Positions 13,957 to 32,200 of a DNA stretch of 57,368 nt are shown piece by piece. How positions within the stretch are numbered: position 1 is the stretch's first letter; every line of letters begins with the position of its first letter. This DNA is from a virus, in the IMG/VR virus record IMGVR_UViG_3300020221_000020, positions 1 to 57,368 of that record; one strand, written 5' to 3'. The position numbers and the translations under genes were made by a program. The notes beneath the pieces were generated by a model. It did no database searches, had not been told where the DNA came from, and saw only the letters and a program-made list of their open reading frames with translations.

Positions 13957-13980
13957 GAATATACAGAGACCCTTCTTATG

Positions 13981-13988
13981 TATTTATT
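13981..13988 (-). promoter_or_regulatory. Late promoter motif AATAAATA for the neck operon
   Basis: AATAAATA overlaps the TAA stop of the U32-like gene and lies 24 bases before the gp13 ATG. Confidence 0.55.
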
Positions 13989-15702
13989 ATTTTTCTAATA
14001 CGAATATCTGTAATCCATTCCAAAAACTATTCACATCTTCAACGACTGTTGTTAAAATTTTTCTATCAAACAATACTTTCAATTTATTTTGTTGTATAAA
14101 ATTGTAACTTGAATACACAACTCCATCAAAGTTGGCATCATCTAATACCAAAATAAATTTGTCATCCAACAATGGCAACATATGATTCAATGATTCTAAT
14201 TGACCTTCTGGCGAATGGTCTGAGTCATAGAAAATTACATTTGGTTTATGACCATTGAAATCTTCTGCTGATAAATCAGTAACTGACTTCTCGATAAAAG
14301 TATCAGAATCTTTTGCTAAGTGTTTCCAATTATATTTAAATTCTTCCTTTGGTGATTGATATTCTTTCCAGGGCACGTAATCCATCATTGGTTTAACATT
14401 CTCTGAAAAGTTATCAACGGCAAAGGATACGATATTATTATCTTCTGTGGCAGCAAAAAATGTGCTACCCATAAAACTGCCAGTTTCTAGGTAAGTTACA
14501 TCTTCATTATCACACAAACTATTTAAGAAATGTTTTACTAAATCAGATGATAGTCCTTGAATTTTTTTAAATTTATATTTTGAATCTTTTAGATATGCTT
14601 TGTCGATAGCATTTAAACAAATAGAAACTAATCTATCTGTGTATTCTGTATGTGATTTTTTGAAATAAGTATTGACTACTGCTTCACAATAATTGCAATC
14701 CCAACAATCAAACTTACAAGTTTTAATTTTTTCTCTCCACAAATCAATTGGTTTTTCTTTTAATTCAATATTGTCGGAATACTTTTTAAATTGTGGAAAC
14801 ATGTATTCAACATCTTTAGACCATCGATGAATTAAATCCATCGATTCTTCTAGTCTAGTAGCTGATTCTCTGCCATGTAATTTAAATACATCTATTCCTA
14901 AATTTAAAAATTCTTCCCAGTCTGCTTTCCACGGTGGAAGATTGGCAGCTTTAAGTGAAGTTGCAGAATCTTCTAAATCCCACTTAGAACAAGAAACTCT
15001 GCTGATGGGATTATTAAAATATTGCGACTCTGGAAATTGTCTAGTGCTATTATAATGATAGTGCTCTGGCATGATAGGACATCCACCCCAACAACCTTCA
15101 TTAACTAGTAATGAAATCTTTACTGGTTTACCTATAGAAGCACAATAATCTTTAGCTTCTTTAATGCGAATTAAAGAATCTCTATCTCTCATCAAATCTC
15201 TATCGAGATTGATGTATTGAAATCCTGCTTTTGCTAAGGATACAACCTCATTAGGTCTAGTAACTTCCCTCAAGATAGTATTTTTTACATATAAATCTGG
15301 AAATTCTTTTTGAATTTGTCCAGTCATTAACCAAGATGTATGTGGAATAGTAGCAATCTTTACCCCAACTTCATACAAGTATGTAAAATTTTCAATAAAA
15401 ATATCTAAATTTTCTTGTGTTGGTCTAACGTGAATGTTATTAAAAGTTGCTGAAAGAGGTATTCCAGTTTCATTACTGATGTATAATGCTTGCTTGATTA
15501 CAGCAACATCTGCTTCCTCACCACCAATAAAAGTTTCTCCCATTGCATCTTGAGCAAATGGGGGAATCCTACTAGTAAAGTATAAATCAAAAATATAATC
15601 TGAATGCTGCTTTAAAAATGGTATAAAAATACTATCAATAAATTCAGGAGATAGTTTGGGATTTATCGGTAGACTGAAGACTTTTTGTTTCACTTGTGAC
15701 AT
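13987..15702 (-). CDS. U32-peptidase-like Fe-S TIM barrel fused to class I SAM methyltransferase, 571 aa
   Basis: The N-terminal 345 residues look like the U32 family ([4Fe-4S] TIM barrels such as UbiU/UbiV, TrhP and RlhA). Seen are FPDLYVKNTILREVTRPNEV near 134, which matches the FPDLPIH.S...N element of U32; NEGCWGGCP (C204, C208) at the place of the U32 signature; SCSKW (C238); GIDVFKLHGRES near 270, matching the G.D..KIEGR motif; and CKFDCWDCNYC (C329, C333, C336, C339). Residues 380-571 are a Rossmann methyltransferase: YLETGSFMGSTF (motif I, near 404), FAVDNF (motif II), FYDSDHSPEGQ (near 492) and LVLDDANFDG (near 518). The fusion suggests hydroxylation or another Fe-S-dependent step followed by methylation. 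The substrate is unknown: tRNA, rRNA or a virion/glycan target. Family calls are by eye. Confidence 0.72.
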   Translation of the reverse strand: MSQVKQKVFSLPINPKLSPEFIDSIFIPFLKQHSDYIFDLYFTSRIPPFAQDAMGETFIGGEEADVAVIKQALYISNETGIPLSATFNNIHVRPTQENLDIFIENFTYLYEVGVKIATIPHTSWLMTGQIQKEFPDLYVKNTILREVTRPNEVVSLAKAGFQYINLDRDLMRDRDSLIRIKEAKDYCASIGKPVKISLLVNEGCWGGCPIMPEHYHYNSTRQFPESQYFNNPISRVSCSKWDLEDSATSLKAANLPPWKADWEEFLNLGIDVFKLHGRESATRLEESMDLIHRWSKDVEYMFPQFKKYSDNIELKEKPIDLWREKIKTCKFDCWDCNYCEAVVNTYFKKSHTEYTDRLVSICLNAIDKAYLKDSKYKFKKIQGLSSDLVKHFLNSLCDNEDVTYLETGSFMGSTFFAATEDNNIVSFAVDNFSENVKPMMDYVPWKEYQSPKEEFKYNWKHLAKDSDTFIEKSVTDLSAEDFNGHKPNVIFYDSDHSPEGQLESLNHMLPLLDDKFILVLDDANFDGVVYSSYNFIQQNKLKVLFDRKILTTVVEDVNSFWNGLQIFVLEK

Positions 15703-23625: not shown

Positions 23626-23645
23626 CTAAAAACCCCAACTTGAGT

Positions 23646-23653
23646 TATTTATG
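23646..23653 (-). promoter_or_regulatory. Second late promoter motif CATAAATA
   Basis: It lies 20 bases before the ATG at 23625 and 10 bases downstream of the perfect TATAAATA, giving a possible double promoter for this gene. Confidence 0.45.
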
Positions 23654-23663
23654 ATATCACAAG

Positions 23664-23671
23664 TATTTATA
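23664..23671 (-). promoter_or_regulatory. Late promoter TATAAATA
   Basis: A perfect T4-late octamer in the 57-base gap before the 223-aa gene. A second motif, CATAAATA, lies at 23653-23646 nearer the ATG (23625). Confidence 0.6.
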
Positions 23672-28306: not shown

Positions 28307-28648
28307 TTAAAATCCACCGCCATCAACATCAATAAGATTGTCAAGATCAACATTCAATTCATCAATAAAGGATTGTGGCAATCCAGGTGATGTAAGATCT
28401 GTTGCCGCAGTTGCGAGCACAACATCTGGATTGACAAATTTGTATTTTTTCAAAGCAGCATCATAAACCATGACATAATTATTTGTAGTGTTTCCTACTT
28501 TATCTAAAGCAGAGGAGTCTACATTTCCTAAATCTTCTAGTGACTGTGCCAAGAGTTGTGTGGTGGATAAACGGAGATTTGTTACTGATTTAAGTTGAGC
28601 GGTAATGTTATTACCATATGTCATTTTTACGCGATACTCTGACATCAA
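28307..28648 (-). CDS. Small virion structural protein, 113 aa
   Basis: A 113-residue protein starting MMSEYRVKMTYGNNITAQLK. M2 is also a possible start. It has a SLEDLGNVDSSALDKVGNTTNNYVMVYDAALKKYKFVNPD segment, seen as GNTTNNYVMVYDAALKKYKF near residues 52-71. This is the kind of short strand unit that recurs in marine phage fibre proteins (value decoded, then term built into a sum). The C-terminus ends DLDNLIDVDGGGF, and the neighbouring 499-aa fibre also ends in DGGTF, so the two may share a C-terminal contact motif. It overlaps the preceding gene by four bases. Role inferred: minor fibre or connector. Confidence 0.62.
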   Translation of the reverse strand: MMSEYRVKMTYGNNITAQLKSVTNLRLSTTQLLAQSLEDLGNVDSSALDKVGNTTNNYVMVYDAALKKYKFVNPDVVLATAATDLTSPGLPQSFIDELNVDLDNLIDVDGGGF

Positions 28649-28977
28649 GTAACTCCTGGTGATACGGTTACGATTCCTTCTGCTACTCTGGTTTTTACAC
28701 CACCGCTGGATGTAATAACCAAATCATAAACATAACGTCCAGGTTTTAAAATTTTGGTAGCAAAATTGCCCATTGATAATTTTAACTTACCATCTGATCT
28801 ATTGACAAAAGAAGTGCCAAAATTATTATATGAAGATGAAGTATGTGTTTTTCTAATTTTTGCTTCGGCTGTATAACCAGTCAAATCTAATGGCACATTA
28901 TTTGCTGATGTTACAGTAAACTGTGCCTCAAAATCTGCACCTTGCTCCACAACTAAATTTACAGGTATGGCTGCCAT
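28645..28977 (-). CDS. Small virion structural protein with BppU-like beta domain, 110 aa
   Basis: A 110-residue protein starting MAAIPVNLVVEQGADFEAQF. The pattern QGADFEAQFTV...VPLDLTGYTAEAKIRK...DGKLKLSM...GRYVYDLVITSSGG resembles the beta-sandwich BppU/DUF2479-type domain that anchors receptor-binding proteins to baseplates in other tailed phages. The similarity is judged by eye and is distant. The gene starts a new transcription unit after the terminator and overlaps the next gene by four bases (ATGA). It probably links fibres to the baseplate or neck. Confidence 0.68.
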   Translation of the reverse strand: MAAIPVNLVVEQGADFEAQFTVTSANNVPLDLTGYTAEAKIRKTHTSSSYNNFGTSFVNRSDGKLKLSMGNFATKILKPGRYVYDLVITSSGGVKTRVAEGIVTVSPGVT

Positions 28978-28987
28978 TGCTACCTAC

Positions 28988-29020
28988 AAAAAACCCTTCG
29001 TATGATATTTATACGAAGGG
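28988..29020 (-). terminator. Rho-independent terminator with a late promoter in its loop
   Basis: The minus strand reads a 10-bp perfect stem, CCCTTCGTAT and ATACGAAGGG, around a 7-base loop, followed by TTTTTT (28993-28988). It lies seven bases after the stop of the coiled-coil gene. The loop and part of the stem contain TATAAATA (29013-29006). Confidence 0.85.
29006..29013 (-). promoter_or_regulatory. Late promoter TATAAATA inside the terminator loop
   Basis: A perfect T4-late octamer 28 bases upstream of the ATG at 28977. With the usual spacing, transcription would start around 29000, inside the second stem arm. The new transcript would then lack the first arm and could not form the terminator hairpin. 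Confidence 0.65.
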
Positions 29021-29026
29021 GGGGAA

Positions 29027-29233
29027 TTATTCTTCAGTTGTAGTTTCTTCTTCAGGCAACTCACCCAAATCTTCAGATTCGGATTTTTCAAGCAATTCAA
29101 TAGTTTCTAAACCACCTTGTAATTTGAGTTTATACTCTTGTGCTTTTGCTAACTCTGTTTGAATTTGAGCAATTTTTTCGTCAATTTCTTTGAGTTGATT
29201 TTGAAAATTTTCTTTCAGACCAGTAGTATCCAT
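29027..29233 (-). CDS. Small acidic coiled-coil protein, 68 aa
   Basis: The frame opens at a TTG (29254), but the ATG at 29233 is the likely start, giving 68 residues: MDTTGLKENFQNQLKEIDEK and on. Residues 5-50 form heptads (I/L/A at a and d) typical of a coiled coil. The last 20 residues are almost all acidic and end in EEETTTEE. The form resembles small trimerising chaperones such as T4 gp57A (79 aa) in size and coiled-coil character, but no homology is claimed. It lies between two fibre genes and is followed by an intrinsic terminator, so it ends a transcription unit. Confidence 0.7.
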   Translation of the reverse strand: MDTTGLKENFQNQLKEIDEKIAQIQTELAKAQEYKLKLQGGLETIELLEKSESEDLGELPEEETTTEE

Positions 29234-29277: not shown

Positions 29278-32200
29278 TCAAGAGATTACGTAATTTTTTT
29301 GAATAATCAAACGATTTAAATAATCATTTCCATCAAATGCAGGAGTATAACGTAATCTAACATTACCCCCAGAAATGTCTGCAGTAAATGCTCCGAGTAA
29401 TCTATTATTAAAAATAGTTGAATACTCTGTTACATAAACATCTGTGCCATCATTTAAAAGCATTAACTCCGTTGAATGAATATAATTGTTGACTGTATTT
29501 TTAATTTGAATTAAATATTTTGCTGTATAAACAGATGATACTCCAAATGAATCAACAGTAATGGTTGCCGAAGAAGTGGAATCTATAACTTCTAAATTAT
29601 CTAAAATTCTAACAATTTTTAATACACCATAGTTTTGTGTATCATTACCAGATTGATAATACAGGAAAGGCGGAGCATTTTGTGGTACTGTAAATCTAAC
29701 AGTAGTATTACTACCATTACCGTTACCAATAACACCAGTTGTATATAAATTTGCTCCAATAGGACCAGGAGATGTAACAATATTAAATGGGTGACCCGTT
29801 ACATCTCCTAATCGAAATACATATTCTTTACCAGGAATTAATTGTAAATCGGGTAAAACACCCAAATCTTGTGAGATATTTACATCTAAAATTTTATATC
29901 TATTGTTTTCTTTGGTAACTTCAAATGTTGGTACACCAGCAACTCCAATACCAATTTCTATCTCACCTGGATTTGCTGGAAGTAATCCAACATTTCCTAA
30001 TAAAGTCCTAGGTCCTATATTTTGTAGTTTTCCTAAATTTATTCCTTTTTCTTTAATATCAATAACATTTTGAGGATTGATATCAAATAAACTAAATTTA
30101 TACCTAGCAACACCCAAACTACTAGATCCAGATGTTTGTCCTGAAGAATATGCAGCAGCATTTACATCTAATTCTAAGAAACCACTCTCATGAATAGATC
30201 CAACTGTTACTTGACCACCAGAGATATAACTACCAGGATTTGTAGACTTTGCTACAGTAAAAGTATCGCTATCGACTAATGTAATTTGATATGTGCCATT
30301 AAATGTATCTGGAATTATCCCTTCTACTTCTACAAAATCCCCATCATTTAATAGGTGAGCAACAGAAGTATTGAATGTAACTAAATTTGTAGATGCACTC
30401 CATGTTGCTGATGAAATATTTTTTGAGACACCAGTTTTTTTTAGAATATCTCTAGTGCCGCCAACAGAAATTGCTGAGTTTATTGGAGGTAAAATACCTT
30501 TAACTACAGGAGTAAATTTACTGATACCACTTAAATAAGTATCTTCGTTTGGTACTCCAGTGCCTAATCTTGACGGGGATAAAATGCCAGAAACAATGGC
30601 AGAAGCATCTAGTTGATTTAACGATAGTAATTCCCAATTATCTGGGTCTGTTGCTGGTAAAGCAGTGAGAATCCAAGTTTGCACTACTGTATTTGGATCT
30701 CCATCTAACTCATTCTTTTGTACTGCTATATCTCCAGGTTTTAATGCATTACCAATAAATGTTAACGTTTGCCCAGCGGTAATTGTTGGTAGTGATTGAT
30801 CTACGGTAATCGTTTTATTAACAACATCAATTCCACCAATTACAATTCTAGTATTATCTGGAATTCCTGTACCAGTTATTAAAAGACCATCACGTAAATT
30901 TGTTACACTGTTTAAAACAATAGTATTTGTAGTATTACTAACAACAGTTTTATATGCTACAGGAATATATTCCTGTAGTCTTTCTATATCAGTTTCAATC
31001 GTATAAACTACAAATTGTTGTGTTTGTGGTAATTGAGAAACATCAATTTTTCCGTTAGAATCTAATTGTACAATTAAACCAGGAATACTTGCGGTGCCTT
31101 TGTTTAATCCAATAAAGTTTCCTAATACAGAAGATTTGTTGATATAATCTCTAACTGCTTTTTGAGTCGGTAATACAGTATGAGCCGCACCAACTACTCC
31201 ACCTAAAGTATCATCTGGAGAAAATTTAAATATTGGTACTCCAGGAGATCCTTTAAGTTGTAACGAATCTAATACTCCAAGAGCAACAGATCCATTAAAT
31301 GTTACTTTACCGCTTCTTAAATCTACATTGAAAAATTGACCGACACTAAAATTACCGCTTTGATCTGTAGCACTAACATAACATTTTCCAGAATCTATTT
31401 CAACATTTTGTGTTGCTGTAACAGTGATACCACCATTTTGTGGAAATGCAGTATAATTAATTCCAGATCCCACATACTCAAAAGTGTGCCCAGAACTATT
31501 AACTGTTGATGGTGAGAATAATTGAATTTGTGCGTTATTTGCTATTGCTGCTACTTGAGCATTTGTTAATGGAAAATTGGTCGTAAATTGAGTATTATTT
31601 CCTTCGCTGTAACTTAATACTTCCCCTACTACTTGCTCATTTCCATTTGGATCTAAACCTAAACCAGGAATTTTAATAATATAATTTGGAATTGGTGGTG
31701 CTTGGAAACCAGTTACGGTTACTTTAGTAAATACGGATCCAGTTGCAATAGTAATTTCTCCAGTAGAAGATCCTGGTGTATTAGCATAATTAGCATTCCA
31801 TGCAGTATCTAAAATAATAGAAATTCTATTAGTTTGAAAATCTACGCTATCAATGATTCTTCCAGTGCCATTGATTGATGGAGTAGAAACATGATTAGAA
31901 ATTGTTATTGCTTGACCTCTTTCAAATTTTCCAATATCTATAATTGAAACTTCTATAGTAACTTTTGTTTTAGTATTTCCAGCTGTTGAAGAAAATACAG
32001 TTCCTATAATACCACTTGGTGTTTGATTTATATCACTTTTTGTAATATTTTGTACTGAAGAAACTTGCCCTGCAGAAAAAATGGGCAATACATTATCAGA
32101 AAAACCAACTGCTTTTAATCCTTCTATACCAAAGTTTGTAGCAGAGTTAGTAATAGAAGCATACCCGCCAGATTCACAAAGTACACCTACTGCTTCAAAA

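What the first reader, a model, noticed from the sequence alone, without database searches (positions are those of the whole stretch)
28988..29020. Terminator whose loop contains a late promoter: a self-resetting boundary
Seen: a perfect 10-bp stem plus TTTTTT on the minus strand, with TATAAATA spanning the loop and stem. Known: the T4 late octamer is followed by the start site about 6-7 bases downstream. Inference: transcripts that read through the whole element form the hairpin and stop, while transcripts that begin at the loop promoter lack the first arm and escape. One 33-base element could then insulate and restart the operon at once.
Basis: partly seen in the sequence, partly recalled or inferred. 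Interest (0 to 1): 0.62.

Follow-up and report, generated by a model that had tools for sequence, protein, structure and literature searches.

The report
Late promoter nested inside a terminator
In a marine phage related to T4, a 33-base stop signal between two genes carries the next gene's start signal in its loop, so RNA arriving from upstream should be cut off while RNA starting there should escape; relatives keep this nested design with matching changes in the stem.

Summary
It is not chance. About 40 distinct related contigs, and isolates S-PM2, S-RIM32, Syn1 and S-CAM4, keep the design with compensatory stem changes around an invariant TAAATA. Across 643 distinct terminators TAAATA takes the in-loop register 46 times; 14 permuted hexamers average 1.3 (maximum 6). 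In 11 marine phage genomes or long contigs it occurs 10 times against 0.6; T4, RB49 and KVP40 have none. By the T4 start rule +1 falls in the 3' arm, so late transcripts keep none of the 5' arm. Where relatives lost the 5' arm, the T-run mostly eroded too while promoter and 3' arm stayed; the window holds one such relic before gp13. Best reading: an intrinsic terminator that stops read-through but is absent from RNAs begun at its nested late promoter. It works like the T4 gene e/49 nested promoters, but on termination instead of translation. No transcript-end data were available, so termination and escape remain inferred.

The parts
29011..29020 (-). left (5') arm of the terminator hairpin, CCCTTCGTAT
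29004..29010 (-). loop AAATATC
28994..29003 (-). right (3') arm, ATACGAAGGG
28988..28993 (-). T-run (TTTTTT), predicted release site for read-through RNA
   Evidence: co-loss with left arm in relatives
29006..29013 (-). T4-type late promoter octamer TATAAATA, three bases in the left arm and five in the loop
   Evidence: TAAATA invariant in relatives; consensus NATAAATA in cyanophages, PMC2984593
29000..29000 (-). predicted transcription start (+1), with 29001 (A) as neighbour
   Evidence: octamer at -13 to -6, PMC1524935; folds
29027..29233 (-). upstream gene, 68 aa, phrog_580 (unknown function)
28645..28977 (-). downstream gene, 110 aa, phrog_1084 / L-shaped tail fibre assembly (phrog_3304)
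13970..13988 (-). relic of the same element before gp13: octamer AATAAATA and right arm CATAAGAAGGG kept, left arm and T-run lost
   Evidence: intact copy in the related contig G010

Best explanation
The element is an intrinsic terminator for the upstream unit with the late promoter of the downstream gene nested inside it. RNA polymerase coming from upstream transcribes both arms; the hairpin forms before the U-run and the RNA is released. Late polymerase, carrying the phage sigma factor gp55, recognises the octamer in the loop and starts about 6 nt further on, inside the right arm. Its RNA has no left arm, cannot form the hairpin, and runs through the T-run into the downstream gene. Termination thus depends on where the RNA began. 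Shown: the anatomy, conservation of the register, stem covariation, joint loss of left arm and T-run, and absence of the hairpin from predicted late RNAs. Inferred: that termination and initiation take place in vivo, and the exact +1.
For: Register: TAAATA in the terminator loop 46 times against a mean of 1.3 (maximum 6) for 14 permuted hexamers; 10 against 0.57 (maximum 2) in 11 marine phage genomes or long contigs; reverse motif once against 40. Covariation: 96.5% paired, 30 two-sided changes against 11 +/- 2.8 shuffled, score 0.326 against 0.119 +/- 0.019. Start logic: none of 46 predicted late RNAs keeps a base of the left arm, median energy -17.6 to 0.0 kcal/mol, +1 base G28 A16 C2; window fold. 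Joint loss: 39 of 40 intact hairpins have five or more T in a row, 2 of 7 with a degraded left arm do. Promoter: ATAAATA and CTAAATA are enriched upstream of ORFs in these phages; both are described late promoter cores (PMC2984593, PMC1524935).
Against: No transcript ends were examined. The start rule is borrowed from T4. In the window the predicted +1 is C, not a purine. Counts include related sequences; independent genomic sites number about three or four. Several of the genomes scanned were picked because they carry the phrog_580 gene, and Syn9, P-HM2, P-SSM2 and HTVC008M have no in-loop case. The co-loss test is small, was defined after the pattern was seen, and its rank correlation alone is not significant.
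Confidence: 0.8

Rival explanations
1. Translational lock of the T4 gene e / 49 / soc / I-TevI kind: in read-through RNA the hairpin hides the ribosome binding site; late RNA lacks the 5' strand and is translated. Termination is secondary or absent.
For: The same nesting is documented in T4 (PMC3014915), and the scan recovers T4 gene 49. At the mazG sites the 3' arm is GGGAGG or GGGGAGG, a strong Shine-Dalgarno-like sequence close to the ATG.
Against: In the window the ATG lies 16 nt beyond the stem and does not pair with it. At phrog_580/gp13 sites the GGG of the arm is usually 13 or more nt from the ATG. A conserved T-run directly after the stem, lost with the left arm, is not needed for such a lock.
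Confidence: 0.1
2. Mere compaction: an ordinary terminator and an ordinary promoter overlap to save space, and the exemption of late RNA is only the condition that makes the overlap tolerable, not a selected regulatory feature.
For: Gaps are very short (49 bp here), and terminator-then-promoter without overlap is also common in the same genomes (34 in the two upstream bins).
Against: The molecular mechanism would be the same, so this rivals the reason rather than the working. Recurrence at unrelated gene pairs (phrog_580/gp13, mazG, one more S-CAM3 site) suggests some benefit.
Confidence: 0.3
3. The hairpin is an RNA stability or processing element at the 3' end of the upstream message and does not terminate; the octamer in the loop is an independent promoter.
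For: Terminator hairpins often also protect 3' ends; no 3'-end data are available here.
Against: The T-run follows the stem directly in 39 of 40 intact cases and erodes when the left arm is lost, which processing alone does not require.
Confidence: 0.07
4. Coincidence: an AT-rich loop that happens to read TATAAATA.
For: TATAAATA is not rare in AT-rich DNA (4 found, 8.9 expected in the window).
Against: Permuted-hexamer and reverse-motif controls, invariant TAAATA with covarying stems.
Confidence: 0.01

Closest known systems
T4 gene e, soc, 49 and I-TevI nested late promoters with RBS-sequestering hairpins (PMC3014915)
   Same: A late promoter lies in the 5' strand of an inhibitory hairpin; RNAs from upstream form it, late RNAs lack the 5' strand and escape.
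   Different: There the output is translation (SD or AUG sequestered). Here a U-run follows, the SD/AUG of the window gene is not in the helix, and the octamer reaches into the loop of a short terminator.
Intrinsic (Rho-independent) terminators
   Same: GC-rich stem, short loop, T-run, close behind the upstream stop codon.
   Different: The loop holds a promoter for the next gene, so the terminator is missing from RNAs that start there.
T4-type late promoters (gp55 octamer; PMC2988020) and their cyanophage form NATAAATA (PMC2984593)
   Same: Same octamer and same predicted distance to +1; variants with CTAAATA, as described for Aeh1 (PMC1524935).
   Different: Embedded in a terminator. The passages read in the cyanophage genome comparison (PMC3037559) predict promoters and terminators separately and do not mention nesting.

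Membership tests
Intrinsic terminator | GC-rich stem directly followed by a T-run on the transcribed strand | tested here: met
   10-bp stem and TTTTTT
Intrinsic terminator | position just after an upstream gene | tested here: met
   left arm begins 6 nt after the upstream stop codon at 29027
Intrinsic terminator | RNA 3' ends at the T-run | not testable with these tools
   no transcript-end data
T4-type late promoter | octamer TATAAATA or close variant upstream of a late gene | tested here: met
   upstream enrichment of ATAAATA in the window (10 ORFs against 1.4 for permuted 7-mers) and in complete genomes
T4-type late promoter | start 6 nt after the octamer; dependence on gp55, gp33, gp45 | not testable with these tools
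   position rule taken from PMC1524935; purine bias at predicted +1 in relatives
T4 gene e-type translational lock | late promoter in the 5' strand of the hairpin, so that late RNA lacks it | tested here: met
T4 gene e-type translational lock | Shine-Dalgarno and/or AUG of the downstream gene sequestered in the helix | tested here: not met
   window ATG 28977 lies 16 nt beyond the stem and does not pair with it; plausible only at mazG sites

The most novel reading that the evidence does not exclude
Marine T4-like phages use a recurrent device in which a terminator is made conditional on the RNA's own start point: its arms straddle the +1 of a late promoter, so read-through is stopped, at some sites (mazG) perhaps with the ribosome site locked as well, while late transcripts are exempt without any antiterminator protein.
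Probability: 0.6. Interest if true: 0.7.

Novelty: new variant of a known kind. Interest (0 to 1): 0.62.

Why it matters
It would be a factor-free switch: a terminator that acts on read-through RNA but not on RNA begun at its own nested promoter. This matters more in hosts without Rho, as is held for cyanobacteria (own knowledge, not checked here). It extends T4's known translational trick to transcription termination, is directly testable in S-PM2 with Synechococcus WH7803, and suggests a compact insulator-plus-promoter part of about 33 bp. Annotation that lists promoters and terminators separately misses the coupling.

Tried and rejected
Near-identical DNA in the phage collection: none. Exact hairpin in IMG/VR: only one close relative, so families were collected through flanking genes. 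Rfam: nothing. Bidirectional terminator: rejected, no T-run on the plus strand. Syn9 as test case: it has 5 nt and no phrog_580 gene before gp13, and the paper looked up by the DOI I recalled for its transcriptome is not held. Two S-PM2 expression papers gave no start or stop sites here. Literature searches for a promoter inside a terminator found nothing relevant; the library is open-access only, so this is weak evidence of novelty. The first alignment mixed stem types whose 5' arms are one base out of register, so covariation was counted on types B and C only. Two broader versions of the left-arm / T-run test mixed in unrelated sites and start-in-loop hairpins; the family-restricted one was used. 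That the mazG sites mark an early-to-late border rests only on gp41 and mazG lying upstream; the downstream genes have no known function.

Full report
WHAT IS THERE. It lies in a 49-bp gap between a 68-aa phrog_580 gene (stop at 29027) and a 110-aa gene of phrog_1084 / L-shaped tail fibre assembly (ATG at 28977). The surrounding minus-strand genes are a T4-type virion cluster: major head protein, scaffold, portal, terminase, gp13- and gp14-like connectors, tail fibres and baseplate wedge. Named relatives are almost all Synechococcus and Prochlorococcus phages, so the phage is of the cyanophage kind; its host is not known.

CONSERVATION. Homologues of both flanking genes were fetched from IMG/VR. 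Behind the phrog_580 gene about 40 distinct contigs carry a terminator hairpin with ATAAATA or CTAAATA in its loop, although stems differ and the next gene may be the fibre-assembly gene or gp13. S-PM2 has it between S-PM2p095 and gp13. Seventeen distinct hairpins show pair changes at several stem positions. The formal count on 23 distinct rows gives 96.5% paired cells (shuffled 85.5 +/- 1.3), 30 two-sided changes (11.0 +/- 2.8) and a covariation score of 0.326 (shuffled 0.119 +/- 0.019; at most 0.097 when slid). TAAATA is invariant, though these sets were selected for carrying it. The stem is thus kept as a structure around a fixed promoter core.

REGISTER. For every distinct terminator in the fetched sequence I measured the hairpin centre relative to the +1 implied by nearby ATAAATA or CTAAATA (octamer at -13 to -6: PMC1524935; -13 numbering also in PMC2988020), with the 14 other orderings of the hexamer as control. 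Three registers stand out: terminator just upstream of the octamer (34 in two bins, the usual order); octamer in the loop (46 against 1.3, maximum 6); and +1 in the loop, with the octamer at the outer edge of the left arm (14 against 1.0, maximum 7, so weaker). Between the first two there are none. Those loci were collected by gene homology, so I repeated the scan on nine isolate genomes (S-PM2, S-RIM32, Syn1, S-CAM4, S-CAM3, Syn9, P-HM2, P-SSM2, HTVC008M) and two long viral contigs: 10 in-loop cases against 0.57, maximum 2 for any permutation. They fall into the phrog_580/gp13 site, a site behind mazG, and one further S-CAM3 site. Five of the isolates and the two contigs had been picked because they carry phrog_580, so the scan is blind only to the other sites; the remaining four isolates have none. 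T4, RB49 and KVP40 have none in the loop. T4 gives one start-in-loop case just upstream of gene 49, an already known nested late promoter.

WHAT THE LATE RNA LOSES. In all 46 in-loop hairpins the predicted late transcript keeps no base of the left arm; the median energy goes from -17.6 to 0.0 kcal/mol; the predicted +1 is G 28, A 16, C 2, a purine bias that independently suits the start rule. For the window, RNA starting at 29000 or 29001 cannot form the terminator.

NATURAL EXPERIMENT. Some relatives keep promoter and right arm (TAAATA...AAGGG) before gp13 but have lost the left arm. In the family-restricted set 39 of 40 intact hairpins have five or more T in a row, but only 2 of 7 degraded ones (Fisher p 8e-5). 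The window holds such a relic before its own gp13: AATAAATACATAAGAAGGGTCTCTG. Contig G010 has intact copies at both places. Left arm and T-run therefore behave as one unit, the terminator, separable from the promoter. The sample is small and was defined after the pattern had been seen.

MECHANISM. Shown by sequence: nested design, one-directional terminator, conserved register, covariation, joint loss. From established knowledge: T4-type octamers direct starts about 6 nt downstream; hairpin plus U-run releases RNA. Inferred: read-through RNA stops at 28993-28988, late RNA from about 29000 escapes, and the downstream gene is driven by its own promoter. At this locus both neighbours sit in the virion cluster, so the likely role is to set the expression of adjacent late units independently. 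At the mazG site the upstream genes are replication-type (gp41, mazG) and the 3' arm GGGAGG could also serve as Shine-Dalgarno, so a double lock is possible there; the downstream genes have no known function.

COMPARISON. T4 genes e, soc, 49 and I-TevI have hairpins that hide the ribosome site and that late transcripts lack (PMC3014915). The logic is the same, but the defining feature there, a sequestered SD or AUG, is not met at the window site, and the T-run and in-loop octamer are additional here. I call it a new variant that works like the T4 device, not a member of it. No paper describing a late promoter in a terminator loop was found; the library is open-access only.

LIMITS. No transcript ends; start rule borrowed from T4; related sequences inflate counts; few independent sites; compaction as the reason for the overlap is not excluded, since it predicts the same anatomy.

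Noticed in passing
window 13970-13988 (-): Relic of the element before gp13: octamer and right arm kept, left arm and T-run lost.
   Followed up: yes
L311-L332 downstream of mazG; L177:13157 (-); L212:14202; Syn1 L446:3035, S-CAM4 L426:5695, S-CAM3 L457:5809: A second family of in-loop elements behind mazG, whose 3' arm GGGAGG/GGGGAGG could also be a Shine-Dalgarno, so termination and ribosome access might be locked by one hairpin.
   Followed up: partly
L325, L327, L334, L350, L368, L378 behind mazG; L236, L243, L253, L257 before gp13; S-PM2 L191:5172: Start-in-loop hairpins: octamer at the outer edge of the left arm and predicted +1 in the loop, for example AATAAATACCCCC^GTAAGGGGGTTTTTTATG.
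   Followed up: partly
G010: L197:14273 and L198:9776: One contig carries two intact copies, before the fibre-assembly gene and before gp13, as if genes had been inserted between phrog_580 and gp13.
   Followed up: partly
L457:17840 (S-CAM3, about record base 177,840): A third in-loop site between small genes of unknown function; the downstream one is phrog_566.
   Followed up: no
window 23628-23671 (-): Two octamer-like boxes followed by GGGGTTTTT just before an ATG, resembling the right half of the element without a matching left arm.
   Followed up: no
window 30956-30979 (+): Strong palindromic hairpin (CTACAGGAATATATTCCTGTAG) inside the 1646-aa tail fibre gene.
   Followed up: no
complete genomes, e.g. 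S-CAM4, Syn9, P-SSM2, S-CAM3: CTAAATA is enriched upstream of ORFs in these cyanophages (14, 10, 17 and 9 against about 3 to 6) but not in T4 (1), suggesting a second late promoter core as described for Aeh1.
   Followed up: partly
window 13987-15702 (-): 571-aa gene of phrog_1458 (unknown function) directly before gp13; the G010 counterpart begins with a GGGSAGW motif as in flavin-dependent halogenases (recalled resemblance, not tested).
   Followed up: no
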